NCBI RefSeq assembly: GCF_002532075.1
Contig: NZ_LYXE01000125.1
Span: 1-35,911 of the forward strand
Reading direction: 5' to 3'
DNA: 35,911 nucleotides
Source: Candidatus Chloroploca asiatica
GTDB lineage: Bacteria > Chloroflexota > Chloroflexia > Chloroflexales > Chloroflexaceae
Below are positions 3,743-35,911 of this stretch, one piece after another (positions within the stretch are counted from its first letter, which is position 1; each line of letters starts with the position of its first letter). The notes beneath the pieces are model-generated. The model worked only from the letters and a program-made list of their open reading frames with translations, searched no databases and was not told the DNA's origin. The position numbers and the translations under genes are program-made.

Positions 3743-3752
3743 GGTGCTCTTG

Positions 3753-3793
3753 GTTGCCTGTCCTCAGTATACTCGATTTCAGGCACGAATCTG
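3753..3793 (-). promoter_or_regulatory. Conserved promoter block P1 upstream of the STAND gene
   Basis: A 41-nt block almost identical to blocks at 8245-8285 and 9183-9223. Each lies just upstream of a STAND gene or STAND relic. On the minus strand it contains TATACT (3771-3766), a good -10 element, preceded by the invariant CAGATTCGTGCCTGAAAT. No convincing -35 is visible, so the conserved upstream segment may bind a regulator. Transcription would start roughly 15-20 nt before the ATG. Confidence 0.55.
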
Positions 3794-3832
3794 AACGGCT
3801 TGACGGAGCGTGTCTCACCACGCTTCTTTTTT

Positions 3833-3884
3833 GACGCCAAGGCGCGAAGGCGCAGAGATCGCACCGCCAGGGCGTGCTGCACCA
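3833..3884. repeat. Single arm of a dispersed fold-back repeat
   Basis: These 52 nt, starting GACGCCAAGGCGCGAAGG, closely match 9350-9401, the left half of a complete fold-back element. The right arm is missing here. A shorter, diverged copy follows promoter block P3 near 9261. Confidence 0.6.
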
Positions 3885-3899
3885 GGCCAACGAGGATCA

Positions 3900-14140: not shown

Positions 14141-14196
14141 CATCGTGATCAGCAATATATGCTTCGCAATCGCCGGTTATTCTCTTGGGAGAGCTC

Positions 14197-17100: not shown

Positions 17101-18636
17101 CAACTGGAGCGCATGCTCCGCGATATGTATGCACGCAACCTGACGGAAGATGTCATTAAGAGCCGGATCGTCGAGCAGGTTGACACTGAGCGCTTCCGGC
17201 GCATTAGCTTTTCGGCATTGGAAGGCTTGGCGAAGCGCGAGTTGAACCTGGCGGCAATTGTTGGTCATACGGCTGAGGCCCGCGAACGCAAGCTTGTGCC
17301 CGAAGTCATCCGCGATTTTTTCCTCCAAGCTAGTTCGGTCGCCGGTATCCAGGTACGTGCGGTCGGTCGCAGCGCCTCGACCGACAAGCCCCGCACCGGC
17401 CCCCTCGGCAATCCGGGCAGTGGGCCAATCTACCGTGTTGGTCGCATTCCACGGACGCTGGTAGAAATTGGCGAGCAGCAAGAAGCACGCTTCGGGCGCC
17501 TGGGGCGTGAGTATAAGCAGATTGCGTTCGACCAGCATGCCTTGAAGGACGATGCGACCCTGGAGTGGGTCACACCTGGACACCCATTGTTCGAGGCGGT
17601 ACGCGAAGATATCCGTGCGCAGACGCAGACCGATCTCCAGCGTGGTGCGATCTTTTTTGAGTTCCAGCGGAATATGCCAGCACGACTGGATGTCTTTTCG
17701 GCATCCATCGTCGATGGACGTAGGAAGGAACTGCATTGCCGACTCTTTGTTGTTGAAACTGCCTTGGATGGCACGATGAATGTGCGCCAGCCAACCTTAT
17801 TCCTCGACTTGGTGCCGGCACCAGAAGGTACCGCTGTGCCGGATGACGGTGGGTTGCCCAACTGCACGGTCGCGGAGCAGTTCCTGATTGATCAGGAGTT
17901 GCAAGGTAATCTGGCGCAGGTCGCCGCTGCACGCACGAAAGAGATCGCGACGATTGAGGAGCATCTCAAGATTAGTCTGGATGCGCTTATCAATCGCCAG
18001 AGTCTTCGGATGGCCGAGCTCCAAATTGCACAGGACTCAGGTGACGAGTCACCGCTGTTGGCGGCCAACCTCAAGACCACCGAGGATCGCCTGGATGTGC
18101 TCAACCGTCGGCTTGAGCGCCGCAGCGCCGAGATTGAGCAGGAACGCCACTGCACGATTGACAACGTTCGCCCGATTGCTCAGGCGTGGGTGTTGCCGCA
18201 CCCCGAGCGAACCTCCGAATTGCTCGCACCAATGGTGTCTGACCCGGATATCGAGCGCATTGCAGTTCAGGCAGTGATCGCCTACGAGAAGGCGCACGGG
18301 CGTCGCTCTATCGAGAGCGTTGAGAAAGACAACCGCGGCTTCGACCTGATCTCGCGTCGGCTGCATCCCGAAAACCCACAAACAGCCCTTGAAGTGCGCT
18401 TTATCGAGGTCAAAGGGCGTGCATTGGTTGGCGAGGTTGCCCTGACTAGTAACGAGTACCATACCGCTGAGCGGCTCAAGGACGACTACTGGCTGTATGT
18501 TGTCTATAACTGTGCGACAACGCCAGAGGTACAGGTCATCCGCAACCCAGCACGGCTCGAATGGGCCGAGGTCATGCAGGTGGCGCATTATCGTGTGGGG
18601 GTAGGGTCGATTATGAAGGCAGCCAGCACAGCGTAA
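14197..18636 (+). CDS. Hanks-type Ser/Thr kinase fused to SNF2 helicase with DUF3883 domain
   Basis: A 1479-aa fusion. Residues 12-265 are a complete protein kinase: Gly loop GKGGFGAVY (19-27), Lys42 in VAIK, HRDIKPQN (136-143), DFG (156-158), then SDLYSLGAMLYFMLTG. A linker (270-325) leads to the helicase: N-terminal domain 330-430, Walker A DDPGAGKT (448-455), DEAH (549-552), TATPHKGD, and motif VI QRMGRIHRYGQ near 906-916. A long C-terminal region ends in a DUF3883 domain (about 1370-1440) with GFDLISRR and FIEVKGR, compatible with a PD-(D/E)xK-like fold. Without residues 1-320 this resembles the large helicase of DISARM-type defence loci. The ATG at 14197 has GGAG 5 nt upstream; TTG at 14185 is less likely. 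It is the first gene of a co-directional cluster with the methyltransferase and ATPase, which suggests phosphorylation control of a restriction-like complex (inference). Confidence 0.88.
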   Translation: MLTIGSKLQGRYEIEALLGKGGFGAVYQAREQPPLRRLVAIKQTLFPEDLRHISRFEQEAELLAQVTHDALPRVYSYFEESRSCFLVMEFVPGMTLASYVTQQPQSCLSEAEALRLLAPILDALEYLHTLNPPVIHRDIKPQNVRITPKGKIFLVDFGIAKLGDPSVRTETIARAVTSGFSPFEQYSGGSTDARSDLYSLGAMLYFMLTGVTPPDAPQRVRVDPLIPLHTLNASLSSTLAAIVTRMMAVWPDDRFADVAAVRQALRSGMPFVSAPQSVDRPQAHALPVDSARAAELESEARSPEITPLLGSSTSMRSTVTDVPSIIARLKPNVIVYGPMFPERVQIIEVTLAGTSIRIKGEGLSSGKVLRPILTPQQLNDLTIEDVGLFDGDPQRFRLGIEAMRLGLAYEYDPYFSLSIARVDPLPHQLEAVYDYFLKQPRIRFLLADDPGAGKTIMAGLLIKELKIRGLAQRVLIVTPANLTFQWQREMKDRFREQFEIVRGDVLRSTYGSNPWQEKNQVITSISWVSRMDDARESLLRSRWDLIIVDEAHKMSAYSDDKKTLAYQLGEALSEMTDHYLLMTATPHKGDPENFALFLKLLDPDVYGDVSSLEKAIERREAPFYLRRVKEAMVTFPDPQTGEVKTLFTKREVRTIDFEIDDNEWEFYDALTHYVEEQSVMAAADQSARGRAVGFTMAMLQRRFASSVYAVRRSLERMQERREKILADPEAYRQGQITKRMPENFDELPDDEQQQILEELEQVVASVDPVTLKHEIAQIGRLITQASELEQREIESKLVKLKEQLATRGVFADPKMKLLLFTEHRETLDYLVTKLRAWGLTVTQIYGGMPIGDRDTPGSRIYAEREFKDTCQVLVATEAAGEGINLQFCWFMINYDIPWNPVRLEQRMGRIHRYGQEKDCLILNFVSTRTREGRVLQKLFERIREIEGALDPQRTGKVFNVLGDIFPSNQLERMLRDMYARNLTEDVIKSRIVEQVDTERFRRISFSALEGLAKRELNLAAIVGHTAEARERKLVPEVIRDFFLQASSVAGIQVRAVGRSASTDKPRTGPLGNPGSGPIYRVGRIPRTLVEIGEQQEARFGRLGREYKQIAFDQHALKDDATLEWVTPGHPLFEAVREDIRAQTQTDLQRGAIFFEFQRNMPARLDVFSASIVDGRRKELHCRLFVVETALDGTMNVRQPTLFLDLVPAPEGTAVPDDGGLPNCTVAEQFLIDQELQGNLAQVAAARTKEIATIEEHLKISLDALINRQSLRMAELQIAQDSGDESPLLAANLKTTEDRLDVLNRRLERRSAEIEQERHCTIDNVRPIAQAWVLPHPERTSELLAPMVSDPDIERIAVQAVIAYEKAHGRRSIESVEKDNRGFDLISRRLHPENPQTALEVRFIEVKGRALVGEVALTSNEYHTAERLKDDYWLYVVYNCATTPEVQVIRNPARLEWAEVMQVAHYRVGVGSIMKAASTA

Positions 18637-18691
18637 CCATGGTACAATTTTTTATCATTTCCATTGACTCGCGTGATGAGGAGGCATCGGT

Positions 18692-19057
18692 ATGACTCAA
18701 ATGACGCCCTATGATGCAGTCTTAGTGCTGGCCAGGCAACTTGCGCCGACCGAGCAAGCGCGCTTAGCCGCCGCGCTGATTGGCGTGCCATCCGAGCCAA
18801 CGCAGACCGATGCACCAGCGCGATGGCCAAGTCTCACACCCGAGGTGCAACAGTTGCTTGCGGGGAAAACCGCTCATGATTTCGACGTGCCACCCGATGG
18901 CACGCCCGAGGATGCACGTGCGCTGGTGCGCTCATGGGCCGAAGAAGATGCCGACGCCACGGAAGAAGAGGGTGAGTCGTGGGAGGATGTGCTGCGTTCG
19001 CTCGACGCCAACCGTTTCTCGGCCCGCCGCTTGTTTCCTGAAATGTTGACCACCTGA
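18692..19057 (+). CDS. Small acidic protein, possibly antitoxin-like
   Basis: A 121-aa protein with an excellent ribosome site (GAGGAGG) and a TACAAT -10-like hexamer at 18643. Its N-terminus (YDAVLVLARQLAPTEQARLAAALIG) has the same helix pattern as the antitoxin at 8773-9009 (YETILRLVRSW...). The C-terminal half is strongly acidic (WAEEDADATEEEGESWEDVL). It sits between the helicase and the methyltransferase, 55 nt and 81 nt from them. I do not recognise a family. It could be an antitoxin whose toxin is lost, an inhibitor of the complex, or a DNA-mimic-like regulator; all three are inference. Confidence 0.7.
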   Translation: MTQMTPYDAVLVLARQLAPTEQARLAAALIGVPSEPTQTDAPARWPSLTPEVQQLLAGKTAHDFDVPPDGTPEDARALVRSWAEEDADATEEEGESWEDVLRSLDANRFSARRLFPEMLTT

Positions 19058-19138
19058 CGCGGCTCGCACCAGCCGAGCATTGGCAGAAGATCACGGGATA
19101 GATCAATTGTTTGGTCTCGCTCGTGTGAAGGAATCGTT

Positions 19139-22100
19139 GTGACCACCACCACCTACCCGCGCCGCCTGATCGAGGTCGATCTGCCAATTAAGCGCATCTC
19201 TGCCCATGCCCGCCGCGAGAAGAGTATTCGGCACGGCCATATCAGCACACTGCACATCTGGTGGGCCCGCCGCCCGCTAGCCGCATGTCGGGCGGTTATT
19301 TGCGCATCGCTGTGGCCCGATCCAGCCGATGAGCTGTGCCCGCCGGTATTCCGCACGGTTGCCGCGCATGTACTGGCCGAGTTCGGCGAACTGGTGCGTA
19401 CCGACCGTGCATTGGCTGAGTTGTGTAGCCCCGAAAGCTTCAAGCGCTGGCAACGGACGACCAAGCAGACCCTGCGGGCAAACGACCCGGCATGTTGGCC
19501 AGATCTGCGCTATGCATTGCTTGATTTCATCGCCGACTTCGCCAACTGGGATGCTTCGACGGTTCCAGCGTATCTCGAAACTTCGCGCGCATTGACGCAA
19601 GCGGCCCACGAAGCCCTTGGTGGTATGCCTGGCACGCGACCATTGGTTGTCGATCCATTCGCCGGCGGCGGTGCCATCCCGCTGGAGGCGCTGCGCGTTG
19701 GTGCGGATGCATTCGCGTCCGATCTGAACCCTATACCGATATTATTGAATAAGGTAGTTCAAGAATATATTCCACGATATGGTAATGATTTAGCACGACA
19801 GGTGCGCGAATCCGGCATTAGAGTAAGGGCGCTCATAGAGCAAAAGCTCGGAGCTTTTTACGTAAGCAATGATCCGAATGAGAAACCTTATGCTTTCTTT
19901 TGGGGAAGAACCATTATTTGCGAGGGACCATCGTGTGGCTATCGATTTCCGCTCATCAAGTCGCTATGGTTAAGACAGAAAAGTAAGAACGGTGTTGCGC
20001 TCGAATTAAAGCCTAACCATCGAACACGAGAGGTTGATATTGATGTAAGGATAGGCGTTCATTTGCAAGAAGTTGGTTCAGGAACATCGAAACAAGGGGC
20101 AGCTACCTGCCCAGTCTGTGGTTATACAACTTCAGTTGAGAGTGTAAGACGCCAGTTATCTCAGCGTAATGGTGGGACTTTAGACGCACAAATGCTCGCT
20201 ATATGTATCTCTAGTAACTCATATATAGGAAAGACGTATCGAAAACCCACCGATGATGAGAGATCTCGCTTTAATATAGCCTTGGCGGCTTACCATAGAT
20301 TAATTCCTAACGAAGGAGATGATATTCCCGACATTCCAAATGAAATGTTGAATCATCTGCGGGGGTTTTTCAATGTGGTTCTATATGGAATGAAGAGATG
20401 GGGCGATCTGTTCGGCCCTCGTCAGGCTCTACTGATGACATCGCTTACCAAAGAGATTCGCGTAGAACACCAAAGATTGCTCAATATATGCCCTGATATG
20501 GCCGATGCTGTGGCTACTTGCCTGGCATTAGCTGCGGGCAAAGTTGCCCAGTACAATTCCTCCTGTTGTCGATGGAAGTCTACTGGGGAAACGTTGATAG
20601 ACATGTTTGGTAGGCAGGCTATCCCTATGGTATGGGATTTTTCAGAAGCGTATCCATTTGGAGGTAGCACGGGCGATTACGGTCAGTATATCGAATCATT
20701 TTGTACAACTCTGGACACGCTTTCGCTTGTTTTATCCTCAAGCGGGACAACCCAACAGGCCAGTGCCACCCAACATCCCCTCCCAGATAACATAGTCGAA
20801 GCTTTTGTGACAGATCCACCATACTATGATGCCATTCCATATGCTGATCTTTCTGACTTCTTTTATGTGTGGCATCGTAGAATGTTAGGAAACATACATA
20901 GCGAGCTTTATTCGGGCAATCTCTCACCAAAAGATGAAGAATGCGTAACTCTATCTCATCGAGCGGCAATGTATCGACATAAAGATCGCTCATTCTTTGA
21001 GCGGATGATGTCCATTGCTATGGCAGAAGGCAGACGCATCACGAAGCCGCAAGGAATTGGTGTTGTAGTCTTTGCCAATAAATCAACTACTGGCTGGGAA
21101 GCCATGATTGGTGCTCTGGTTAGTTCTGGATGGATCATATCAGCTTCATGGCCTATTGATACCGAAATGAGCAGTAGACTCCGTGCTCAAGATTCAGCAG
21201 TTCTTGCTTCGTCGGTTCATCTTGTCTGCCGCCCGCGTGAGCAGGCCGACGGGACACTCACCGAAGATATCGGTGACTGGCGCGATGTACTACAAGAACT
21301 GCCTCTCCGCATCCACGAATGGATGCCGCGACTAGCCGCCGAAGGCGTAGTTGGTGCCGACGCAATCTTCGCCTGCCTCGGCCCGGCACTGGAGATTTTC
21401 AGCCGCTACAGCCGTGTCGAGAAGGCCAGTGGTGAACAGGTCAAGTTGGGCGAGTATCTGGAGCACGTCTGGGCGGCTGTCTCGCGCGAGGCGCTTTCGC
21501 TGCTGTTCAAGGACGCCGACGCCAGTGGTTTAGAGCCGGACGCACGCCTCACCGCCATGTGGCTCTGGACGCTCTCGACCGCCGACGACCGCCGACCAAG
21601 TAACGGCAACGGCGAGGGCGATGAAACCGACGAGAACGACGACGAATCGACCAGCAGCAAAAGTGCTGGAAAGGGTGGCTTTAGCCTGGAGTTTGACGCT
21701 GCACGCAAGATCGCGCAAGGGCTTGGCGCAAACCTTGACATCCTACGGCATGTTGTCGAGGTCAAAGGTGAGACGGCGCGCCTCATCTCGGTCGGCGAGC
21801 GCACCCGCTATCTGTTCGGCAAGGACGAGGCGATGGCACCCGCCAATCGCAAGATCAAGAAAAGTGCTCAGCAAATGAGCCTGTTCGCCGAGCTAGAGCA
21901 AGCCGAAGAAGAGGCTGGCTGGGGCGAAAAGAGTGCGCCGCCAGCTGGCGCAACCGTGCTCGATCGCGTTCACCAAGCGATGATTTTGTTCGCTGCTGGT
22001 CGGGCCGAAGCCATGAAGCGCTTCCTCGTTGAGGAGGGTGCTGGCACCGATCCACGCTTCTGGCAGTTGGCGCAGTCGCTTTCGGCACTCTACCCCACCG

Positions 22101-22162
22101 CTACGGACGAAAAGCGCTGGGTGGATGGCGTACTAGCGCGGAAGAAGGGGTTGGGGTTTTAG
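19139..22162 (+). CDS. DUF1156 DNA methyltransferase (adenine-specific type)
   Basis: A 1007-aa protein with GTG start (AAGGA upstream). The N-terminus (PIKRISAHARREKSIRHGHISTLHIWWARRPL) is the DUF1156 signature. SAM motif I is VDPFAGGGAIPLEAL (DPFAGGG at 172-178); the catalytic motif IV is TDPPYYDAIPYADL (DPPY at 559-562), followed by FFYVWHRR. Cys pairs (CEGPSCGYRF, CPVCGY) in the middle suggest a zinc-binding part of the target-recognition region. The C-terminal third is acidic and helical. DPPY-type enzymes make N6-methyladenine, so this would mark self DNA. The stretch coding for residues about 199-695 is conspicuously AT-rich (ATA, AGA, TTA codons), unlike both flanks, suggesting recombinational exchange. 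It is followed 49 nt later by the DUF499 ATPase. Confidence 0.88.
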   Translation: MTTTTYPRRLIEVDLPIKRISAHARREKSIRHGHISTLHIWWARRPLAACRAVICASLWPDPADELCPPVFRTVAAHVLAEFGELVRTDRALAELCSPESFKRWQRTTKQTLRANDPACWPDLRYALLDFIADFANWDASTVPAYLETSRALTQAAHEALGGMPGTRPLVVDPFAGGGAIPLEALRVGADAFASDLNPIPILLNKVVQEYIPRYGNDLARQVRESGIRVRALIEQKLGAFYVSNDPNEKPYAFFWGRTIICEGPSCGYRFPLIKSLWLRQKSKNGVALELKPNHRTREVDIDVRIGVHLQEVGSGTSKQGAATCPVCGYTTSVESVRRQLSQRNGGTLDAQMLAICISSNSYIGKTYRKPTDDERSRFNIALAAYHRLIPNEGDDIPDIPNEMLNHLRGFFNVVLYGMKRWGDLFGPRQALLMTSLTKEIRVEHQRLLNICPDMADAVATCLALAAGKVAQYNSSCCRWKSTGETLIDMFGRQAIPMVWDFSEAYPFGGSTGDYGQYIESFCTTLDTLSLVLSSSGTTQQASATQHPLPDNIVEAFVTDPPYYDAIPYADLSDFFYVWHRRMLGNIHSELYSGNLSPKDEECVTLSHRAAMYRHKDRSFFERMMSIAMAEGRRITKPQGIGVVVFANKSTTGWEAMIGALVSSGWIISASWPIDTEMSSRLRAQDSAVLASSVHLVCRPREQADGTLTEDIGDWRDVLQELPLRIHEWMPRLAAEGVVGADAIFACLGPALEIFSRYSRVEKASGEQVKLGEYLEHVWAAVSREALSLLFKDADASGLEPDARLTAMWLWTLSTADDRRPSNGNGEGDETDENDDESTSSKSAGKGGFSLEFDAARKIAQGLGANLDILRHVVEVKGETARLISVGERTRYLFGKDEAMAPANRKIKKSAQQMSLFAELEQAEEEAGWGEKSAPPAGATVLDRVHQAMILFAAGRAEAMKRFLVEEGAGTDPRFWQLAQSLSALYPTATDEKRWVDGVLARKKGLGF

Positions 22163-22211
22163 TTTCACGTAGACCGGTTTACCGAAAAAACAGCATCACA
22201 AGGATCTTCAT

Positions 22212-25200
22212 ATGGCACTCAAACCCTGGTACACTGTCATTCCCCCACGCGAAGACCTGCGATCGGGCAAGCCGCTCGACGCATCAGAGTTTGCTGTCCA
22301 TCTCGATCAGGTGCGCGATGAGCGAGCGCCGATTGATTACCGCGATCCTGAGCGTTTCTTTGAGCGCACTTACCTCACGCAGACCTTGCTCGGCCTTGGC
22401 TCCGAGGTCGTTCGCCGCCTTTCAGGCGAGACAACTGAGACCTCAGCGGTATTCAACCTCTCGACCCAATTTGGTGGTGGTAAGACCCACGCCTTGACCT
22501 TGCTATATCACTTGGCCAAACATGGAAAAGGTGCTGATCATTGGCCCGGTGTCCAGCGGATTCTCGAAAAGGGCGGTGTGGCGTCTGTTCCCGATGCAGC
22601 CGTTGCGGTGTTTGTCGGCACCGAGTTCGACTCACTTACCGGTCGCGGTGGAACTGACGGTACGCCACTCCGCCGCACACCCTGGGGGGAGATTGCGTAT
22701 CAGCTTGGTGGCGCACCGGCACTCGCCGTGCTGGCAGAACATGAGGAACAGTTTGTCGAACCGAAAGGCGACGTCATTCGGGCCTTTCTCCCCAAAGACA
22801 AGCCGTGTCTCATCCTCATGGACGAGATTATCAACTACGTCAGCACCTATCGGCGCAAAGGCTATGGCAATGCGCTCTACAACTTCATTCAGGCGCTTTC
22901 GGAAACCGCACGCGGCATGAAGAATGTCGTGCTGGTCGTTTCGATCCCTGCATCAGTACTGGATTACACGGCGGAGGACATTGACGACGAGGGCCGTTTC
23001 AAACGCATGCTCGACCGACTTGGCAAAGCCTATATGATGTCGGCGGAGAGTGAGACCTCGGAAATCATCCGTCGACGGTTGTTTGAATGGGATCTGCGTG
23101 CGGTCGGGCAGAACGGACGCATCGCCCTGCCGAAAGAGGCACTGAACACCTGTAACGACTACGCCGATTGGGTCGTTGCGCACCGTCAGTCGCTCCCACA
23201 ATCCTTCCCGATCGACAGCGCCCGCGATGCCTTTGCCGCAACCTATCCCTTCCATCCCATGGTGCTCTCGGTCTTTGAGCGCAAGTGGCAATCACTCCCC
23301 CGCTTCCAACAGACGCGTGGCATGCTGCGCCTGCTGGCGCTGTGGGTCTCGAAGGCCTACCGTGAAGGATTTACCGGTGCTTTTCGCGATCCACTGATCG
23401 ATCTTGGTACCGCGCCGCTCGATGACGCCATGTTCCGTGCGGCGGCCTTTGAGCAACTCGGCGAATCAAAACTGGAAGTGCCGGTCACCACCGATATCTG
23501 TGGCAAAAAAGACTCGCATGCCGCACGCTTGGACGAAGAAGCCAGCGATACGATCAAGCGTGCCCGCTTGCACCGCAAGGTCGCGACCGCAATTTTCTTC
23601 GAGTCAAACGGTGGCCAGGCTCAGAGCTATGCAACCCTCCCAGAAGTGCGGATGTCGGTAGCGGCCCCAACCCTCGATATTGCAAATGTCGAAACGGTGC
23701 TCGAGGCGTTAGTTCCCCCTAATGGCGTGTGCTACTACTTGGACACGAATAAAAACCGTTATTGGTTCAGTACCAAGCCCAACTTGAGCAAGCTGCTCGC
23801 CGACCGGAAGGCCAGCGTTCAATCACCGAGGATTGACGAGCGGGTACGCACTGAAATCGAAAAGGTATTTAGTCCCTTGCCGGGTACCGAGCGAGTTTTT
23901 TTCCCGACGGCGAGCGGTCATATACCGAATCAGCCAGTGCTAACACTGGTCATCCTTGCGCCTGACCAATCGCCACAAGACTCATTGACCCTGACGCGCC
24001 TTGAGGCGATGACGCGTGAATCAGGCAATGGATCGCGAACCTTCAAGAGCGCACTGCTCTGGGTGCTCGCCGATGGCGATGGGGCGTTGCGCGAAGAGGC
24101 CCGCAAGCTCTTGGCATGGGAAGCGATTAGTGATGAGAAGGACGACTTGGCGCTCGACGAGGTGCAGAAGAAACAGATCGACACCAATTTCAGCAACGCC
24201 CGTCGCGATCTACGTGAGAGCGTCTGGCGCGCCTACAACCATATTGCGATGTTAGGAAAAGGCAATGACATCGAGGTCAAAAACCTGGGACTGGTGCATT
24301 CAAGTTCAGCGAACTCTCCGGTTCAACTTATCATTAACCGGCTAAAGATGGATGGCGACATTGAGGAAAGCATTGGCCCGAGTTTCCTTGTACGCAATTG
24401 GCCCGCCTTCGCCGAATGGAGTACCCGCTCGGTACGCGATGCGTTCTTTGCCTCGCCCAAATTTCCACGGCTGCTAAGCGCCACTGCTGTCAAGGAGACG
24501 ATTGCGAAGGGCGTCGCGAATGGGTTTCTTGCTTACGTTGGCAAAATGGCTGATGGCGACTACCAGCCCTTTATCTACGGTACCAGCCTACAACCTGGCG
24601 ATGTCGAGATCTCCGATGACATGTATGTTATTACGAAAGAGACCGCTGATGCCTACCAGCGTGCGAAGAGTGAGGCGCGCACGCTGACAAGCCTCGTCAT
24701 TAGCCCATCCCAGATTACGCTCAAACCCAGTGAGCAATGCAAATTCACCGTACAGGGCTATGATCAACAGCGTAAAGAAATGCCGGTAGAGAGTGTCGTT
24801 TGGAGTACAAGCGCTGGGTTCATCGCCGAAAACGGAACGTTTGTCGCCAGCGACGAGCCAGGCACAACCACCATCACCGCCACGCTCGGCAGCATCACTG
24901 CTACCAGCACTATTCAGGTACGTTCCGTCGATGACAAAGGCATTCGTGACGGGTCAGACGATGGCAATCATCAGCCAGAACTTCCGAAGCCTGTTGATCC
25001 TCCTATGCCAGACGCACTCGCTCGCCTCATCTGGGAAGGCGAAATTCCTTGGCAAAAGTGGGCAAACTTTTACCCCAAGATTCTTGCAAAATTTGCCTCA
25101 ACTAAGGGCTTAAAGTTGACGCTCCGGGTAGAGGTTGCACCTGACAAAGGCGTTTCAGCGCAGCAGGTTGAGGAAATGAAGCTTGGGTTGCGTGAGCTTG

Positions 25201-25229
25201 GGTTGGATGATACGGTGCGAACAGAGTAG
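22212..25229 (+). CDS. DUF499 ATPase with C-terminal Ig-like domain
   Basis: A 1005-aa P-loop ATPase beginning MALKPWYTVIPPREDLRSG, the DUF499 start. Walker A is QFGGGKTH (86-93), Walker B is CLILMDEIINYV (199-210). The family regularly travels with DUF1156 methyltransferases and SNF2 helicases and is distantly similar to the BrxC/PglY-type ATPases of phage exclusion systems; the usual view is that it powers assembly or movement of the complex on DNA. Residues about 828-905 form an Ig-like (BIG-type) beta domain (ISPSQITLKPSEQCKFTV, then WSTSAGFI, ITATLGSITATSTIQV), often an adhesion or protein-binding module. The last 70 residues (IPWQKWANFYPKIL...) resume a conserved DUF499-like tail. AAGGAT precedes the ATG. 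Confidence 0.88.
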   Translation: MALKPWYTVIPPREDLRSGKPLDASEFAVHLDQVRDERAPIDYRDPERFFERTYLTQTLLGLGSEVVRRLSGETTETSAVFNLSTQFGGGKTHALTLLYHLAKHGKGADHWPGVQRILEKGGVASVPDAAVAVFVGTEFDSLTGRGGTDGTPLRRTPWGEIAYQLGGAPALAVLAEHEEQFVEPKGDVIRAFLPKDKPCLILMDEIINYVSTYRRKGYGNALYNFIQALSETARGMKNVVLVVSIPASVLDYTAEDIDDEGRFKRMLDRLGKAYMMSAESETSEIIRRRLFEWDLRAVGQNGRIALPKEALNTCNDYADWVVAHRQSLPQSFPIDSARDAFAATYPFHPMVLSVFERKWQSLPRFQQTRGMLRLLALWVSKAYREGFTGAFRDPLIDLGTAPLDDAMFRAAAFEQLGESKLEVPVTTDICGKKDSHAARLDEEASDTIKRARLHRKVATAIFFESNGGQAQSYATLPEVRMSVAAPTLDIANVETVLEALVPPNGVCYYLDTNKNRYWFSTKPNLSKLLADRKASVQSPRIDERVRTEIEKVFSPLPGTERVFFPTASGHIPNQPVLTLVILAPDQSPQDSLTLTRLEAMTRESGNGSRTFKSALLWVLADGDGALREEARKLLAWEAISDEKDDLALDEVQKKQIDTNFSNARRDLRESVWRAYNHIAMLGKGNDIEVKNLGLVHSSSANSPVQLIINRLKMDGDIEESIGPSFLVRNWPAFAEWSTRSVRDAFFASPKFPRLLSATAVKETIAKGVANGFLAYVGKMADGDYQPFIYGTSLQPGDVEISDDMYVITKETADAYQRAKSEARTLTSLVISPSQITLKPSEQCKFTVQGYDQQRKEMPVESVVWSTSAGFIAENGTFVASDEPGTTTITATLGSITATSTIQVRSVDDKGIRDGSDDGNHQPELPKPVDPPMPDALARLIWEGEIPWQKWANFYPKILAKFASTKGLKLTLRVEVAPDKGVSAQQVEEMKLGLRELGLDDTVRTE

Positions 25230-27641: not shown

Positions 27642-27915
27642 AAGTATAGAGATACCGTTGATTAGCTTTCATGCGGTTCTCGATTTAGGAATTATCTTTA
27701 CCTTGGACTCACTGACCGAGGATTTTACTTTGTTTGGTGCAGCACAACTCTGGAATGAGCATTTAGAACATTGCGTTCTTTCTTGCGTTTTCCGCACCCT
27801 ATTATACCTAATTTTCGATAGTATCGAGCTGGTTTTACATTTTCCAGAACAGGTTTACTTGACGCCGGCGTGATCAGTAATTTTTTTGCTGGATGGATTT
27901 CTTAACCGATTTCAT

Positions 27916-30900
27916 ATGAACAATACCCAACTCCAAACCATCTTTGCCGACGCCCACTCGCGCCTCGCCGCTGATCAGAAGGGCGAACTGGCGCGTAGCG
28001 AAATGTCGTCTCCCCTGGCTTATCTCAGTCTCGCGCTGCTGGAAGCGCTGGCCGTGTGTGTTGATCAGGATGAAGTCGGCGATCTTTTGAAGGAATTGGT
28101 GGGTGCCGAGCACCGCAAGGCTCTGCGCGGCGCCCTGCGCGATCCCCTGTTCGCGCTGCGGGCGATGATTCATGGCGAGGCCCTCGATCTGGCGTGCGCC
28201 GCCCTCATCGAGGCGCTGGGCGCCGCGCAGCAGCAGCCGATGGCGGTGTGCCAGGGGATGTGTGCCGAGCGGATCGAGCATGCGAAACAAATCGTCGCCA
28301 CGAACTACTACGAGGCCCCCAAAGACCCGGCTGAGACCCGGGCGGAGGAGGCGCTGACCGCCTATCTGCATTCACTTCGCCTCCAGTGCAATACAGTGCA
28401 GATGGCCCGCATCGACCCGCGCGATGCCCGTCATCACGCCGAAATGCGCCTGGAGCGCGTGTATATCGGGCTGGACACTGAGCGTCAAGTGGAGCTAAAT
28501 CCCCAGGAGCAAGAGGAGTATGATGACCATCGGGGTGTTATCCAGCGAAGTTTTTTTCGAGATACAAGAAAAGTAAGTGCGCTTGAAACCCTGAACCAAC
28601 ACCCGCCCGCCCGCCTGATGCTGTTGGGCGGCCCCGGCAGCGGCAAGAGTACCTTCCTCAACCACCTGGCTCTCTGTCTGGCTGGAGCCGCCCTTGGTGA
28701 ACGTGTTCAGGTCGAGTCGACCAAGGGTGCAACCCCGCTTGAACGGCTTGCGCCCCATTGGAAATGCGGGGCGTTGCTGCCGATTCGGGTTGTGCTACGG
28801 GAACTGGCCACTGTGCTACCGCGCAACCCAAACCCGGGCCAGGAAGTCGATCTTCTGCATACTTGGTTGGAACAGATCCTGGGTCGCGATGATTCAGCCC
28901 TGGCCTTGCTGCGCCAAGCCTTGCATGACGGGCGGGCGATCCTGCTCTTTGATGGCCTGGACGAGGTTGAGGCTGGCCCGGTGCTCAAGCGCGTCACTGA
29001 GTGTATCGAGGTGTCGGCTGGCATCTATACGCACAGCCCGGTGCTAGTCACCTGCCGCGTGCTTGACTACCAGGCCAACGAGCAACGCCACCTGTCGGGC
29101 TTTCAGGTCGAGACTCTGGCAGCTCTGAATGATGAGCAGATCGATGCTTTTATCAACGCCTGGCACGATGAAGTTGCTGACACCGGGCGCACGATGCTTG
29201 GCAACGCGCCTGGATTGCGCCAGGCCCTCGCCGGACGCACCGACATGAAAGAGATGGCCCGCCAGCCGCTGCTGCTGACCATGATGGCGATCGTCCATGC
29301 CGGCAAGGGCAAGCTCCCCGACGCCCGCGCCCTACTCTACCGTGAGTGCATCGAACTGCTGCTGCTGCGCTGGCGCAGCGAGCCCGACCTGCTGCGCCAG
29401 CTTGGCCTGCCCGAGTTCAAGGAGTCCGATCTGATGAAGGTGATGGCCCGGATTGCCTTCGCCGCCCACAACCGCTCGCTGAGCGACTCCGATGCTAAGA
29501 TGAAGGTGATGGCCCGGATTGCCTTCGCCGCCCACAACCGCTCGCTGAGCGACTCCGATGCTAAAGCGAGACCGTCGGACCTGAGCGGCAGTGAGGTGAA
29601 GGCCGAACTCAATGCTGCCTTCACCTACTACGTCTCCGACGAGGAGCGCCGCGCCGCCCTGGTGATACGCTTGCTCCGCGCCTTTGCCACTCGCAACGGC
29701 TTGCTGTTCCAGCAGAGCGGCGAGAGCGGCGAGGTTTACGCCTTCCCGCACCGCAGCTTCCAGGAGTTTCTGGCTGGCTACTGGATCAGCCTCCAGGACG
29801 ACTTCGACCGGCTGGTGTGTGAACGGGCCGGGCAGGTTGGTTGGCACGAGGCCTTGCGCCTGATGGTCAGCTATCAGGCACTCAAGGATGGGGCGCTCGG
29901 GCGGACGCTGCAAGTGATCAAGGAGTTACTAGACGATCACACTGCTCTGAAGCAAACTCTGGCGGGTGAACTGTTGGCCCTGGTAGGCTACGCCCGCGCT
30001 GCTGGCTATCGTGAGGAGTGGGTCGGTACAAATGGACGCTGGACCAGAGCGTGCATCGCGCTGCGCACCATCGCCACCGCCGATAGTGCGTTGGCCGCTG
30101 CGCCGCTAAGAGCCCGCGCAGGTATAGCCCTTGGGCAGCTCTGCTATGGTTCGTTGGATGCCTTGACTCAGCAGGGGGCCACACTAATTGCCCCCGACCC
30201 ACGTCTGCTCAGTCCGGCCACCGGCGATGCGCCCAATGGGTGCTATTGGTGCCAGCTTGAGCCAGGGTCATTCTGGTATGGCGATGAGTCAGAGGATGCT
30301 GATGACGATGAGGAGGAGTTAGAGGATGCTGATGACGATGAGGAGGAGTTAGAGGATGCTGATGACGATGAGGAGGACAGCAACAAGACCACGGAAAAAG
30401 ATTACGTCTACGCTCCGAAAGATGTGCTCCAGCACGTTATCATCCCCTACGGCTTCAAGATCGCCCGCTACCCCGTCACCAACGCCGAGTTCGCCGCCTT
30501 CATCGCCGCAGGTGGTTACGCCCACGAGTCGTGGTGGACTCCAGAGGGCTGGAAGTACATTCAGCCAGATGGCTCTCGCGTTGAAGGCGAACCCGATCGT
30601 ATCACCTTACCGCGCTACTGGAGCGATCCCGGTCTGAACAACCCGCTCCAGCCGATAGTTGGCGTCTCATGGTATGAGGCCGCAGCCTACTGCAACTGGC
30701 TCACCGCGCAGGGCCATGCGCAGGGTTGGTTGCCTGCCGAGGCAGTGATTCGCCTACCAACCTCGCTGGAGTGGGAGTATGCCGCACGGGGGGGCGACAG
30801 CCAGCAATGGTACCCCTGGGGGAACGATGCACCCACGCCAGAGCACGCCAACTACCGCGAGACGGGCATCGAGCGTCCCGCTCCGGTGGGCTGTTTCCCG

Positions 30901-31200
30901 TTGGGTCGGGCGGCCTGTGGAGCCGAGGATCTGGTTGGTAATATCCAGGAATGGATGGCAACAGCTATAGAAGCCTCAGATGGCGTTGCAGCACGAACAG
31001 ATTTTACGTTTCGGGAAAGGGCGCTAATTGCTTATAATGAATGGAGTAACACAACAGAACAATTAAACTGTGGTTCACGTGTCGAATTCGACCCGAAGGG
31101 TTGGAATATCTTCCTAGGCTTTCGAGTGATCTGGCTCCTTGACGCTCATTCCGAAGGATTGGAATATCTTCCTAGGCTTTCGAGTGATCTGGCTCCTTGA
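27916..31200 (+). CDS. NACHT ATPase with C-terminal FGE-sulfatase (C-type lectin fold) domain
   Basis: A 1094-aa STAND protein. An N-terminal helical domain (1-150) precedes NACHT: Walker A GGPGSGKST (238-246) and Walker B AILLFDGLDEVEAG near 341, with further NACHT helices (FPHRSFQEFLAGYWI near 612). An acidic linker built from three 10-residue repeats (EDADDDEEEL) leads to the FGE-sulfatase domain from residue 846: RYPVTNAEFAAFIAAGGY, VGVSWYEAAAYCNWL, RLPTSLEWEYAARGG, YPWGN, DLVGNIQEWMA. The usual RGGSW motif is replaced, but RVEFDPKGWNIFLGFRVIW marks the normal end. A 58-bp tandem duplication then shifts the frame and adds 16 alien residues. Such proteins act as immune-type sensors in bacteria (family knowledge); the FGE part is probably the sensor. 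The ATG at 27916 has a weak ribosome site. Confidence 0.87.
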   Translation: MNNTQLQTIFADAHSRLAADQKGELARSEMSSPLAYLSLALLEALAVCVDQDEVGDLLKELVGAEHRKALRGALRDPLFALRAMIHGEALDLACAALIEALGAAQQQPMAVCQGMCAERIEHAKQIVATNYYEAPKDPAETRAEEALTAYLHSLRLQCNTVQMARIDPRDARHHAEMRLERVYIGLDTERQVELNPQEQEEYDDHRGVIQRSFFRDTRKVSALETLNQHPPARLMLLGGPGSGKSTFLNHLALCLAGAALGERVQVESTKGATPLERLAPHWKCGALLPIRVVLRELATVLPRNPNPGQEVDLLHTWLEQILGRDDSALALLRQALHDGRAILLFDGLDEVEAGPVLKRVTECIEVSAGIYTHSPVLVTCRVLDYQANEQRHLSGFQVETLAALNDEQIDAFINAWHDEVADTGRTMLGNAPGLRQALAGRTDMKEMARQPLLLTMMAIVHAGKGKLPDARALLYRECIELLLLRWRSEPDLLRQLGLPEFKESDLMKVMARIAFAAHNRSLSDSDAKMKVMARIAFAAHNRSLSDSDAKARPSDLSGSEVKAELNAAFTYYVSDEERRAALVIRLLRAFATRNGLLFQQSGESGEVYAFPHRSFQEFLAGYWISLQDDFDRLVCERAGQVGWHEALRLMVSYQALKDGALGRTLQVIKELLDDHTALKQTLAGELLALVGYARAAGYREEWVGTNGRWTRACIALRTIATADSALAAAPLRARAGIALGQLCYGSLDALTQQGATLIAPDPRLLSPATGDAPNGCYWCQLEPGSFWYGDESEDADDDEEELEDADDDEEELEDADDDEEDSNKTTEKDYVYAPKDVLQHVIIPYGFKIARYPVTNAEFAAFIAAGGYAHESWWTPEGWKYIQPDGSRVEGEPDRITLPRYWSDPGLNNPLQPIVGVSWYEAAAYCNWLTAQGHAQGWLPAEAVIRLPTSLEWEYAARGGDSQQWYPWGNDAPTPEHANYRETGIERPAPVGCFPLGRAACGAEDLVGNIQEWMATAIEASDGVAARTDFTFRERALIAYNEWSNTTEQLNCGSRVEFDPKGWNIFLGFRVIWLLDAHSEGLEYLPRLSSDLAP
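29434..29565 (+). repeat. Tandem duplication of 66 bp inside the NACHT gene
   Basis: Units 29434-29499 and 29500-29565 differ at one position (final codon AAG/AAA). Each encodes 22 residues starting MKVMARIAFAAHNRSLSDS. The duplication is in frame. Confidence 0.95.
30292..30381 (+). repeat. Three 30-bp tandem repeats encoding an acidic linker
   Basis: Units at 30292-30321 and 30322-30351 are identical; the third (30352-30381) differs only at its end. They encode EDADDDEEEL and lie between the NACHT and FGE parts. Copy number is likely to vary between strains. Confidence 0.95.
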
Positions 31201-31208
31201 CGCTCATT
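31093..31208 (+). repeat. Tandem 58-bp duplication at the 3' end of the NACHT-FGE gene
   Basis: Units 31093-31150 and 31151-31208 differ at one base. Because 58 is not a multiple of three, the second copy is read in another frame and ends at a TGA at 31198-31200. Without the duplication the protein would end GFRVIWLLDAH at the TGA now at 31209-31211. Confidence 0.95.
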
Positions 31209-31367: not shown

Positions 31368-32225
31368 ATGCCGGCTGAAAGTGACGCCAAGGCCAAACTC
31401 ACGCTCGGGCTGCTGCTGGTTGGCGCCAGTGTCCTGCCCGCCAGTGGCATCCTGGGCAGTGTGCTCGGCGCGGCCGGGGGGGTTGGAGGCAACTGGGTCG
31501 CTGAGGCCCTCGGTGGTGTCTTTGGGGCTGGCCCACCGCCTGCGGCCCAGCTTCAGCAGGCCTTTACCAATGCAGTGCGCGAGGCCGCTAGCACGCTGCG
31601 CGAGCAGTACGGTCTTGATCGCGTGCGCCACGATAATGCCGATGCCTTCGATTTACTGCGCGATACAGCCCGGAGCGTCACCGCAATCGAACTACCACCC
31701 GAGGCCCAGGATCTAGCGGCGGTGCAACGTAGCCTCGCCGCTGCCCTCAACCAACTGTTGCACGGCCACCCCGATGCCCAGGTTTTGCTGATCAAGCAGC
31801 AGCTGCTGCCCACCACTGCGCGCGCCTTCCAGGCCGAGCTGTCCCGCAACGATCAAGCCTGGCGGCTCTACCACGGCTGGCTGCTTGAGCGGATGCTCAC
31901 CCAGAGTGTGGCCCTCCAGTCGGCCCTAGCCGACCAGCCCGCTGCCCGTGCCCAGTTGAGCAATGTGGCTGCGCTTGAAGCCCACTTCGACCTCTTCGGG
32001 GAGCAGCTGGAGGGTATGTTGACGGCGTTGCGCAAACTGTTGGAGCGGGCGGCCCTGACCCCGGCGGCCCCTGATCAGGCGACGATCACGGTGTTGCAGG
32101 AAATGGAAGCCGAAGCGATTACGCGGGCGCGTCAGCAGGCTTCTGACATCGCGGGTCGCCTGCATCAGCGGATGCAGGCTAAAACGATTAGCGATTCAGT
32201 CCAGATCGCGACCGGCGTGCGCTAA
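31368..32225 (+). CDS. Gly-rich hydrophobic/helical protein, possible STAND-associated effector
   Basis: A 285-aa protein with an excellent ribosome site (AGGAGG 6-7 nt before ATG). Residues 10-53 form a Gly/Ala/Val-rich hydrophobic stretch (LLLVGASVLPASGILGSVLG onward), followed by long amphipathic helices to the end. The layout, and phrases such as QAFTNAVREAASTLREQYGLDRV, resemble the N-terminal 225 residues of the NB-ARC proteins in this window (hydrophobic Gly-rich segment, then a helical bundle). It follows the NACHT-FGE gene by 170 nt on the same strand. A membrane-inserting effector partner is a reasonable guess, not shown by any motif. Confidence 0.7.
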   Translation: MPAESDAKAKLTLGLLLVGASVLPASGILGSVLGAAGGVGGNWVAEALGGVFGAGPPPAAQLQQAFTNAVREAASTLREQYGLDRVRHDNADAFDLLRDTARSVTAIELPPEAQDLAAVQRSLAAALNQLLHGHPDAQVLLIKQQLLPTTARAFQAELSRNDQAWRLYHGWLLERMLTQSVALQSALADQPAARAQLSNVAALEAHFDLFGEQLEGMLTALRKLLERAALTPAAPDQATITVLQEMEAEAITRARQQASDIAGRLHQRMQAKTISDSVQIATGVR

Positions 32226-32581
32226 ACCCATCCAACTGCCCCTGCGCTCGTCCTCACGCCTAGCCCATCCGCGACTCCGGTGATCAGTCTGGTGCTGCGC
32301 TTTACGCCCAGCCCAATCGTCGCGACGATTGCCTGGGAGGGCGACACGGTACAGCCATTTCTTTAGCCCTTATCAGAACGACGATCTCGACATGGTGCTG
32401 CGTACGCTCGATCATATCCAGTACCCAACCAGCAGTCTGAGCGCGGCTGATCAGGCTCGTCTGGATGCGTTGGGTTTGCCGGTTGTCAATGGCATGCTCG
32501 CGCTTGGCATGGAACGTGTCGTTGGTCAGCAGTTCTATGTGGCGCTCACCGCCAACCCCAACGCGGCGCGGGCACTCCACG
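32226..32581 (+). pseudogene. Decayed N-terminal piece of a CHAT/caspase-type protein
   Basis: One frame reads LVLRFTPSPIVATIAWEGDTVQPF and stops at 32365; a second frame takes over with SPYQNDDLDMVLRTLDHIQYP, LSAADQARLDALGL, then RVVGQQFYVALTANPNAARAL. Joined across a frameshift near 32362 these resemble the N-terminal segment of Chloroflexota CHAT/caspase-fold proteins. No start codon context and no protease domain follow. The family assignment rests on memory of similar sequences and is tentative. Confidence 0.45.
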
Positions 32582-32605
32582 GATCCCCTGTTGCTGACCG
32601 ACGTA

Positions 32606-32755
32606 CGGATCTGGATCATCAAGGCGGTGAATGATCTGCGTGGCGCAACCATTGACCTTGCTGCTGATCGGCCTTTGCTTGAAGCTGCCCTCTTTCATTG
32701 TCAACAGGGGATCGAGAAGGCGTTCAAGGCATTTCTGAACTACCACCAGCCAAAG
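32606..32755 (+). pseudogene. Truncated HEPN-domain gene
   Basis: Encodes IWIIKAVNDLRGATIDL, then LLEAALFHCQQGIEKAFKAFL, the characteristic first two helices of small HEPN proteins (part of HEPN/MNT toxin pairs). Similarity stops around 32750, where the sequence becomes the antisense of a PIN gene. The RxxxxH catalytic part and the partner nucleotidyltransferase are absent. Confidence 0.65.
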
Positions 32756-32860
32756 TGTCTGGAGGAGTTGATAGTAGGGGGCGATCTGTTCGACGCTGTA
32801 GATCAATGCATCAGCATCAAGGTAGACCCTACCGCTAGATGGCAAGGTTAACGAACCCAC
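32755..32860 (-). pseudogene. Truncated PIN-domain toxin gene
   Basis: From a GTG at 32860 the minus strand encodes MGSLTLPSSGRVYLDADALI, then YSVEQIAPYYQLLQTLW, the N-terminus of a PIN ribonuclease (first Asp in YLDAD). The frame then enters antisense HEPN sequence, so the rest of the domain is lost. It overlaps the end of the small ORF 32848-32970, its probable antitoxin. Confidence 0.65.
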
Positions 32861-34172: not shown

Positions 34173-35911
34173 TCAGGGCAACGCGATCAACGCCAGCACC
34201 CGGTCGATCAGCGCCGCGTCTTGCTCGTCGAGGCCCGTCACCAGCGCATCACGGTCACGCTCACCGGCCCAGAGGCGCTCGACGGGTTCGCGCAGCCTCC
34301 AGCCCTGCTGCTCAAGGTGCGCCAGGGCCGCTGTGACTTCCTGCCGTGGCGCATCGTCACCGGTGGCAACGGCGGCGATGGCCCCGAGGAGCGCGGTGAC
34401 GTCGCTGGGCGGCGGGGCGGACGTTCCCCTGAGGCGTTCCTGTATGGCAGCCAGACTCCGGCGTGAGCCCTGCGTGTCGGGGTGGTCAGGCCCGAGGCGG
34501 GCTTCGAAGATCGCAAGTGCCCGGCCCATCAGCTGCTCGGCGGTTTGGACATCGTCCTGGTCATAGTAATTGATCGCCAGGTTGTTGAGGCTGGCGGCGG
34601 TGTCAGGATGGTCGGCCCCGAGCGCGTGCTCCCGGATCGCCAGGGCGCGTTCGAAGAGCGGGCGGGCCGCGTCGTAGTTCCCTTGGGTTTGGTGCAGGTA
34701 CGCGAGATTGTTGAGGCTTAAGGCGGTATCGGGATGCTCGGGGCCGAGCACGCGCTCGCGGATCGCCAGGGCGCGTGCGAGGAGCGGGCGGGCCGCGTCG
34801 TACTGCCCCTGCGCGTGGTACAGCCCCGCCAGGTTGTTGAGGCTGGCGGCGGTGTCAGGATGGTCGGCCCCGAGCGCGTGCTCCCGGATCGCCAGGGCGC
34901 GTTCGAAGAGCGGGCGGGCCGCGTCGTAGTTCCCTTGGGTTTGGTGCAGGTACGCGAGATTGTTGAGGCTTAAGGCGGTATTGGGATGCTCGGGGCCGAG
35001 CACGCGCTCGCGGATGGCCAGGGCGCGTGCATAGAGCGGGCGGGCCGCGTCGTAGTTCCCTTGGGCATCGTGCAGGGCCGCGAGATTGCCCAAGCTGGTG
35101 GCGGTATTGGGATGCTCGGGGCCGAGCACGCGCTCGCGGATGGCCAGGGCGCGTGCATAGAGCGGGCGGGCCGCGTCGTAGTTCCCTTGGGCATCGTGCA
35201 GGGCCGCGAGATTGCCCAAGCTGGTGGCGGTATTGGGATGCTCGGGGCCGAGCACGCGCTCGCGGATGGCCAGGGCGCGTGCATAGAGCGGGCGGGCCGC
35301 GTCGTAGTTCCCTTGGGCACGCAACAATGCCGCGAGATTGTTGAGGCTTAAGGCGGTATCGGGATGCTCGGGGCCGAGCACGCGCTCGCGGATCGCCAGG
35401 GCGCGTTCGTAGAGGGGTCGGGCCGCGTCGTAGTTCCCTTGGGCACGCAACAATGCCGCGAGATTGTTGAGGCTTAAGGCGGTATCGGGATGCTCGGGGC
35501 CGAGCACGCGCTCGCGGATCGCCAGGGCGCGTTCGTAGAGGGGTCGGGCCGCGTCGTAGTTCCCTTGGGCACGCAACAATGCCGCGAGATTGTTGAGGCT
35601 TAAGGCGGTATCGGGATGCTCGGGGCCGAGCACGCGCTCGCGGATCGCCAGGGCGCGTTCATAGAGCGGACGGGCCGCGTCGTAGTTCCCTTGGGCATCG
35701 TGCAGGCCCGCGAGATTGTTGAGGCTGGTGGCGGTAGCGGGATGCTCGGGGCCGAGCACGCGCTCGCGGATGTCCAGGGCGCGTTCATAGAGCGGACGGG
35801 CCGCGTCGTAGTTCCCTTGGGCATCGTGCAGGAGCGCGAGATTGTTGAGGCTGGTGGCGGTAGCGGGATGCTCGGGGCCGAGCACGCGCTCGCGGATGTC
35901 CAGGGCGCGTT
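34173..35911 (-). CDS. TPR-repeat STAND-family protein, 3' part (runs off the window)
   Basis: The frame is open to the right edge, so the N-terminus is missing here. About 580 residues are visible: some twelve 42-aa TPR units with LGPEHPDTALSLNNLA consensus, several identical or nearly so at DNA level (three successive ALLRAQG units; two identical LHDAQG units; a two-unit block repeated). The C-terminus carries one copy of the approximately 75-aa domain that is triplicated in the gene at 3900-8216 (VATGDDAPRQEVTAALAHL, ERLWAGERDRDAL, DQDAALIDRV-like ending). By homology the missing part should be hydrophobic N-terminus plus NB-ARC. It stands convergent to nothing and reads toward the broken caspase-like gene on the same strand. 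Confidence 0.85.
   Translation of the reverse strand, partial: RALDIRERVLGPEHPATATSLNNLALLHDAQGNYDAARPLYERALDIRERVLGPEHPATATSLNNLAGLHDAQGNYDAARPLYERALAIRERVLGPEHPDTALSLNNLAALLRAQGNYDAARPLYERALAIRERVLGPEHPDTALSLNNLAALLRAQGNYDAARPLYERALAIRERVLGPEHPDTALSLNNLAALLRAQGNYDAARPLYARALAIRERVLGPEHPNTATSLGNLAALHDAQGNYDAARPLYARALAIRERVLGPEHPNTATSLGNLAALHDAQGNYDAARPLYARALAIRERVLGPEHPNTALSLNNLAYLHQTQGNYDAARPLFERALAIREHALGADHPDTAASLNNLAGLYHAQGQYDAARPLLARALAIRERVLGPEHPDTALSLNNLAYLHQTQGNYDAARPLFERALAIREHALGADHPDTAASLNNLAINYYDQDDVQTAEQLMGRALAIFEARLGPDHPDTQGSRRSLAAIQERLRGTSAPPPSDVTALLGAIAAVATGDDAPRQEVTAALAHLEQQGWRLREPVERLWAGERDRDALVTGLDEQDAALIDRVLALIALP

What the first reader, a model, noticed from the sequence alone, without database searches (positions are those of the whole stretch)
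31093..31208. 58-bp duplication frameshifts the FGE C-terminus
The first copy encodes the normal FGE ending GFRVIWLLDAH; the second copy is read in a shifted frame and adds 16 unrelated residues. Together with the 66- and 30-bp repeats, one gene carries three independent tandem duplications, suggesting that this locus is prone or selected to slip.
Basis: seen in the sequence. Interest (0 to 1): 0.6.

Follow-up and report, generated by a model that had tools for sequence, protein, structure and literature searches.

The report
Duplicated tail of retired variable sensor
The end of a bacterial defence-type sensor gene carries a small 58-letter duplication that adds 16 stray amino acids; relatives of this gene end in a hypervariable tip rewritten by a mutation-making retroelement, which here appears lost, so the duplication is most likely a harmless scar.

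Summary
In detail: 31093-31150 and 31151-31208 are adjacent 58-bp copies (57/58 identical). Copy 1 ends at the family's usual C-terminus; copy 2 is read out of frame and adds 16 residues. Five full-length orthologs lack this and the 66-bp duplication.

Missed context: the gene is a NACHT-FGE fusion whose tip, in relatives, is the variable region (VR) of a diversity-generating retroelement (DGR). Six related loci lie beside DGR-type RT genes; template/VR pairs with nearly only adenine mismatches were found for three of them and for another gene of this genome. For the window gene no RT, template or Avd was found. Its VR keeps 10 of 17 template-constant letters, against 16-17 in 17 of 20 relatives scored. 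The neighbouring CHAT-family gene looks broken.

Best reading: a retired DGR target with a probably neutral tail duplication. Three tandem duplications in one gene is unusual here, but neither slippage (no junction microhomology in the two clean cases) nor selection is supported. A homing accident is not excluded, but 0 of 62 DGR VRs behind long reading frames show a tandem unit of 20 bp or more there. Assembly error cannot be excluded without reads.

The parts
27886..31200 (+). NACHT-FGE fusion gene, 1104 aa as listed from a TTG start; the true start may lie downstream
   Evidence: ORF; Pfam NACHT 5.6e-6, exactly at the cut-off; FGE-sulfatase 1.2e-37; orthologs at 44-61% identity
29433..29564 (+). 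exact 66-bp tandem duplication, in frame (22 aa); absent from 5 of 5 orthologs aligned
30286..30377 (+). 30-bp repeat, 3.1 copies, acidic linker between NACHT and FGE parts; the G028 ortholog has its own 30-bp linker repeat
30421..31149 (+). FGE/C-type-lectin domain, of the kind found in DGR variable proteins, up to the natural C-terminus
31067..31137 (+). eroded variable region: the stretch aligned codon by codon with the 71-nt VR/TR of G012
31093..31150 (+). copy 1 of the 58-bp unit: 3' half of the VR, the conserved GFRVIW stretch and the tail to the natural end (13 nt past the VR end)
31151..31208 (+). copy 2 of the 58-bp unit, read out of frame; ORF stop TGA at 31198-31200
31368..32634 (+). 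apparently broken homolog of the CHAT-domain gene that follows the related cluster in G028: stop at 32223, frameshift near 32347, nearly all of the CHAT part missing; its first ORF of 285 aa is open

Best explanation
The window gene descends from DGR-diversified NACHT-FGE sensors but has lost its retroelement. Its variable region is no longer rewritten and has drifted like ordinary sequence. In this relaxed 3' end a 58-bp stretch, from the middle of the VR to the stop codon, was duplicated in tandem. This leaves the whole domain in frame and replaces the stop with a 16-residue, probably disordered and neutral tail. Shown here: the duplication, its absence in orthologs, the DGRs beside related genes, the drifted VR and the damaged CHAT-family neighbour. 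Inferred: that the DGR was lost rather than never present, that the tail is neutral, and that a DNA-level accident made the duplication.
For: RT genes lie within about 1.2 kb of related FGE targets at six loci (G028:C46, G015:C220, G013:C319, G017:C115, G003:C49, G012:C617, the G012 one below the Pfam cut-off at a contig edge); these RTs are 52-56% identical to the C181 RT of the own genome. TR/VR pairs have mismatches almost only at template adenines: G012 13 of 13, G015 13 of 14, G003 12 of 12, own-genome C181 14 of 15; C181 also has an Avd (NF033474, 2.2e-31). No template for the window VR in the own genome: BLAST with E up to 10 returned only itself and two chance matches of 15 and 17 nt, and a relative's TR matched only the C181 template and an unrelated coding stretch on C9 below E 0.1. 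No RT or Avd homolog in the window (tblastn to 1e-4). Erosion: the window keeps 10 of 17 constant template letters; of 20 relatives scored 17 keep 16-17, G030 14, G041 10, G011 9. Over the last seven codons, 18 of 29 relatives keep 8-9 of 9, the window 4. The tree groups the window with G028, G012, G030 and G011 (93/87, below the starred level). Tail tolerance: tails after the GFR motif differ in length and sequence; the extension is below pLDDT 50.
Against: The closest full-length ortholog, G028b, also has a drifted VR (6 of 9, extra codons) although an RT lies about 400 bp away, so drift alone does not prove loss of the DGR. Adjacent RT is not needed either: G006 and G032 VRs keep 16-17 letters with their RTs found on other contigs. 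Loss is inferred from a tree without strong support at the key fork, whose members G011 and G030 are drifted or partly so. A second lineage (seven rows, 3-5 of 9) shows that low scores also mark genes for which no DGR link was seen. A DGR on unassembled or masked sequence is possible: 199 contigs, 13 of 60 sampled stretches masked. The NACHT motifs and frame are intact, so the gene is not a simple pseudogene. Assembly error cannot be tested here.
Confidence: 0.65

Rival explanations
1. Assembly artefact: two overlapping pieces or strain variants were joined without merging their overlap, doubling 58 bp (and possibly 66 bp).
For: Zero junction microhomology in both. VRs are hard to assemble: 10 of 70 VR rows in the loci scanned read out of frame, some perhaps for that reason. 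One mismatch could be a strain variant.
Against: The two units differ in length (58 and 66), unlike a fixed k-mer overlap (recalled). The genome sample holds other tandem duplications (18 arrays, 14 of them within open frames of 150 codons or more, in 862 kb). No template or sister VR in the genome to be confused with.
Confidence: 0.2
2. The duplication was made by the DGR itself, through faulty mutagenic homing at the 3' end of the VR, before the element was lost.
For: The unit begins inside the VR and covers its 3' constant part. The single difference between copies lies in a column that is adenine in relatives' templates (A in copy 2, G in copy 1), though 12 of the 58 unit positions are such columns.
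Against: 0 of 62 DGR VR rows behind an open frame of 150 codons or more carry a tandem unit of 20 bp or more there, while the same test finds the window's. The unit extends 13 nt past the VR end seen in G012.
Confidence: 0.07
3. The gene was never a DGR target in its own lineage; its tip is simply a diverged FGE/CLec end, and the duplication is an ordinary accident.
For: No template, RT or Avd for it; low constant-letter scores also mark a lineage without a seen DGR link.
Against: It groups with DGR-served genes of G028 and G012 and all the framework residues of the VR are kept.
Confidence: 0.15
4. The extension is functional: selected, for example as a new binding or regulatory tail.
For: The gene is otherwise intact and the tail stays open for 16 codons.
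Against: No duplicated tail in the relatives listed (some have other longer tails, e.g. L076, L010); predicted disordered; it is a shifted-frame copy of existing sequence whose length is set by the first stop.
Confidence: 0.04

Closest known systems
DGR-diversified NACHT/STAND-CLec putative antigen sensors (Dore et al. 2024, PMC10907252)
   Same: NACHT or related STAND NTPase fused to a C-terminal CLec (FGE) domain, filamentous Chloroflexi among the hosts, protease-type neighbours, and 'degenerate' loci lacking machinery
   Different: Here no TR, RT or Avd was found for the gene, the VR has drifted, and a tandem duplication extends the tail
Treponema denticola TvpA (PDB 2y3c) and Bordetella phage Mtd (PDB 1yu1-3)
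   Same: fold of the variable-protein C-terminal domain: Z 21.2 and about 12.8
   Different: no NACHT part; those are targets of intact DGRs (recalled)
Formylglycine-generating enzyme / sulfatase-modifying factor (PF03781)
   Same: family match and fold (Z about 20)
   Different: part of a NACHT fusion; catalytic cysteines not established; best solved match by sequence is EgtB

Membership tests
DGR target gene (active) | VR with a template repeat in the genome, mismatches at template adenines | tested here: not met
   no cognate template in the 5.84-Mb assembly by BLAST to E 10; relatives do have it
DGR target gene (active) | DGR reverse transcriptase and Avd at the locus | tested here: not met
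   no RT/Avd homolog in the window; the genome's two RVT_1 hits are on C85 and C181
DGR target gene (active) | VR keeps the non-adenine letters of the template family | tested here: not met
   10 of 17, against 16-17 in 17 of 20 relatives scored; 4 of 9, against 8-9 in 18 of 29
NACHT-CLec (FGE) sensors whose relatives are DGR targets | NACHT plus C-terminal FGE/CLec, with close relatives that are DGR targets | tested here: met
   (the NACHT match of the window is exactly at the cut-off; one of four orthologs scanned, from G032, is below it)
Formylglycine-generating enzyme | catalytic cysteine pair | tested here: inconclusive
   no residue-level alignment to the two catalytic Cys was obtained; the only Cys in the last 70 residues before the natural end is in NCGSR
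Antiphage NACHT defence | shown protection against phage | not testable with these tools
   only a weak NCBIfam match to EruA (5.7e-7, far below cut-off)

The most novel reading that the evidence does not exclude
Mutagenic homing can occasionally mis-resolve at the 3' end of a variable region and leave a tandem copy of it; this gene preserves such a scar after the retroelement was lost.
Probability: 0.06. Interest if true: 0.55.

Novelty: new member of a known kind. Interest (0 to 1): 0.3.

Why it matters
It suggests what a hypermutable immune-type receptor looks like after its mutator is gone: constant letters drift, the partner gene decays, and the tail tolerates a frameshifting duplication. 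Counting the template letters kept in a VR is a simple way to flag live against retired DGR targets, though G028b shows it is not decisive alone. If the duplication proved to be a homing scar, it would add a new error mode to DGRs.

Tried and rejected
Considered and rejected: that the 58-bp unit is shared with relatives. A 58-bp tandem repeat in L069 (6334-6451) has the same length by coincidence; it is GC-rich sequence past the DGR. A possible template on C9 of the own genome is an unrelated stretch. Plasmid records: no similar DNA. Papers with 'diversity-generating retroelement', 'tandem duplication' and 'variable region': none in the held library; with 'frameshift' and 'variable repeat' 7 hold the terms, 6 listed, seen as listing only; with 'FGE-sulfatase' 6, seen as listing only. 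PMC10907252 was seen as abstract and start of introduction, parts 1 and 2 of 3 of its Results, and search passages; PMC7159879 as search passages only. My first VR codon table missed most rows because of a bad search expression and was redone.

Limits of counts: one search lists 29 relatives; one search scored 20 of them. Left out there: G028b and G006a (other VR lengths) and seven rows of a second lineage; one search scores all 29 over the last seven codons (G028b 6, G006a 6 because of an extra codon, G011 and G041 5, the second lineage 3-5 of 9). The VR/TR scan used 80 genome-contig loci plus 12 others: 72 pairs in 60 loci, 70 after removing identical VRs. Of the 70, 62 lie behind an open frame of 150 codons or more; the one row with a tandem unit of 20 bp or more is L252's second pair, with 6 open codons upstream; L240 and L246 carry 15-16-bp repeats. 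Six rows had no motif to judge the frame, and two out-of-frame rows (L240, L243) begin at a contig edge. In one search a time limit stopped the scan at L233; one search finished L233-L265 around the RT on one strand only. The catalogue behind the 80 loci was capped.

Changed on re-check: the '0 of 69' count became 0 of 62; G028b's drift was added as evidence against, a 'never a target' rival was added, and my confidence was lowered from 0.68 to 0.65 for it.

Full report
1. The observation. The two 58-bp copies are at 31093-31150 and 31151-31208 and differ at one base. The ORF 27886-31200 reads copy 1 in the normal frame to ...GFRVIWLLDAH and copy 2 one base out of phase for 16 codons. Without copy 2 the gene would end CAT-TGA, and relatives end at about the same place, with tails such as SLRAH*, SLRAHE*, SLALIE* and WSPRST*. 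Five full-length orthologs, at 44-61% identity, lack the 22-residue insertion, and their translations to the stop show no duplicated tail.

2. Chance and background. In 862,181 non-N bases from 47 of 60 sampled stretches of the own genome (13 fully masked contigs dropped) I found 18 arrays of 30-200-bp units at 95% identity or more that are not themselves made of shorter repeats, 14 of them within open frames of 150 codons or more. The expectation for a 3.3-kb gene is about 0.07, and this gene has three. The gene was chosen because of its repeats, so this shows it is unusual, not how improbable. Among 20 stretches with related NACHT-FGE or DGR loci four arrays were seen, in L021, L065 (two) and L069; one of them is the G028 ortholog's own linker repeat. 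The two clean duplications have no extra matching bases at their junctions, which does not favour slippage between short repeats.

3. What the gene is. Pfam gives NACHT, exactly at its cut-off, and FGE-sulfatase; three of four orthologs scanned and the C181 gene pass both cut-offs. A model of the FGE part, made from the window protein and 29 relatives, is confident (mean pLDDT 84.9) except for residues 1-10 and 249-264 below 50; the natural end is model residue 248, so the second stretch is exactly the added tail. The nearest solved folds are EgtB (Z 25.0), with TvpA of Treponema denticola at 21.2, FGE at about 20 and the Mtd tropism protein at about 12.8. TvpA and Mtd are DGR variable proteins (recalled; PMC7159879 passages, for TvpA and the Bordetella phage protein); TvpA is also found by sequence (7.2e-6).

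4. The DGR link. The own genome has a complete DGR on contig C181: a NACHT-FGE target, an RT, an Avd (NF033474, 2.2e-31) and a template repeat with 14 of 15 mismatches at template adenines. Relatives of the window gene lie next to RT genes at six loci in other genomes, and template/variable pairs were found for three of them: G012 13 of 13, G015 13 of 14 and G003 12 of 12 adenine mismatches. For G028, G013 and G032 no template was seen in the stretches fetched, but all but one of their VRs keep the constant letters; the exception is G028b.

5. The window VR looks retired. No cognate template was found in the 5.84-Mb assembly by BLAST to E 10, where a 15-nt exact match was still visible, and no RT or Avd relic in the window. 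Relatives' VRs show codons of the form NNC and NGG, as expected when AAC and AGG template codons are mutated only at A. Of 20 relatives scored, 17 keep 16-17 of 17 constant letters, G030 14, G041 10 and G011 9; the window keeps 10. Over the last seven codons all 29 relatives can be scored: 18 keep 8-9 of 9, the rest 3-6, the window 4. Against a simple reading: G028b, the closest full-length ortholog, keeps 6 of 9 although an RT lies about 400 bp away, so a VR can drift beside a DGR. On the tree of the domain without its VR the window groups with G028, G012, G030 and G011 (93/87, below the strong level). Loss of the DGR is the simplest reading, not proven. The neighbouring gene 31368-32634 is an apparently broken relative of the CHAT-domain gene that follows the G028 cluster: a stop, a frameshift, and nearly all of the CHAT part missing.

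6. Does the DGR explain the duplication? The unit runs from inside the VR to the stop codon, and its one mismatch falls in a template-adenine column, but 12 of 58 positions are such columns. Of 70 VR rows from DGR loci, 62 lie behind an open frame of 150 codons or more, and none of these has a tandem unit of 20 bp or more at this place; the same test does find the window's. Homing error is possible but not favoured. The survey also shows 10 of 70 rows, in 8 loci, out of frame within or at the VR; two of these loci start at a contig edge. Frame damage near the VR thus occurs elsewhere, whether by small indels or by assembly error.

7. Verdict. A real feature of the assembly, correctly described, in a gene more interesting than the finding. 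It is most likely a retired member of a published kind, NACHT-CLec sensors diversified by DGRs with degenerate loci (PMC10907252), carrying a probably neutral C-terminal duplication.

Noticed in passing
window 14185-25229: Hma-like defence locus: HmaA helicase (PDLC00659, 3e-180) with an N-terminal kinase-like part matching PD-T4-6 models in the same ORF, HmaB methylase and HmaC ATPase. The kinase-helicase fusion may be worth a look.
   Followed up: partly
L021 (G000:C181:86000-96000), 2409-7319: Complete DGR of the same genome: NACHT-FGE target, RT, Avd, template repeat.
   Followed up: yes
L227, L229, L238, L244, L250 (and L215): DGR variable regions read out of frame relative to their template frame behind long open target ORFs; biology or assembly error not resolved.
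   Followed up: partly
L065:8890-11778 (G028b): Closest ortholog of the window gene: its VR has extra codons and has drifted although an RT and less drifted paralogs lie in the same cluster.
   Followed up: partly
window 32465-32851: Short HEPN-domain ORF (Pfam HEPN, 5.3e-5, just over cut-off) overlapping the damaged CHAT-family gene in another frame.
   Followed up: no
window 34173-35911 and 5043-6097: TPR genes with 126-bp (42-aa) tandem units up to 100% identical; one runs off the contig end.
   Followed up: no
L012, L049-L053, L055 (e.g. G000:C126): A second FGE lineage whose tip (HYWFHPAQRYNLLGFRMVW and similar) is alike between genera, as if frozen rather than diversified.
   Followed up: no
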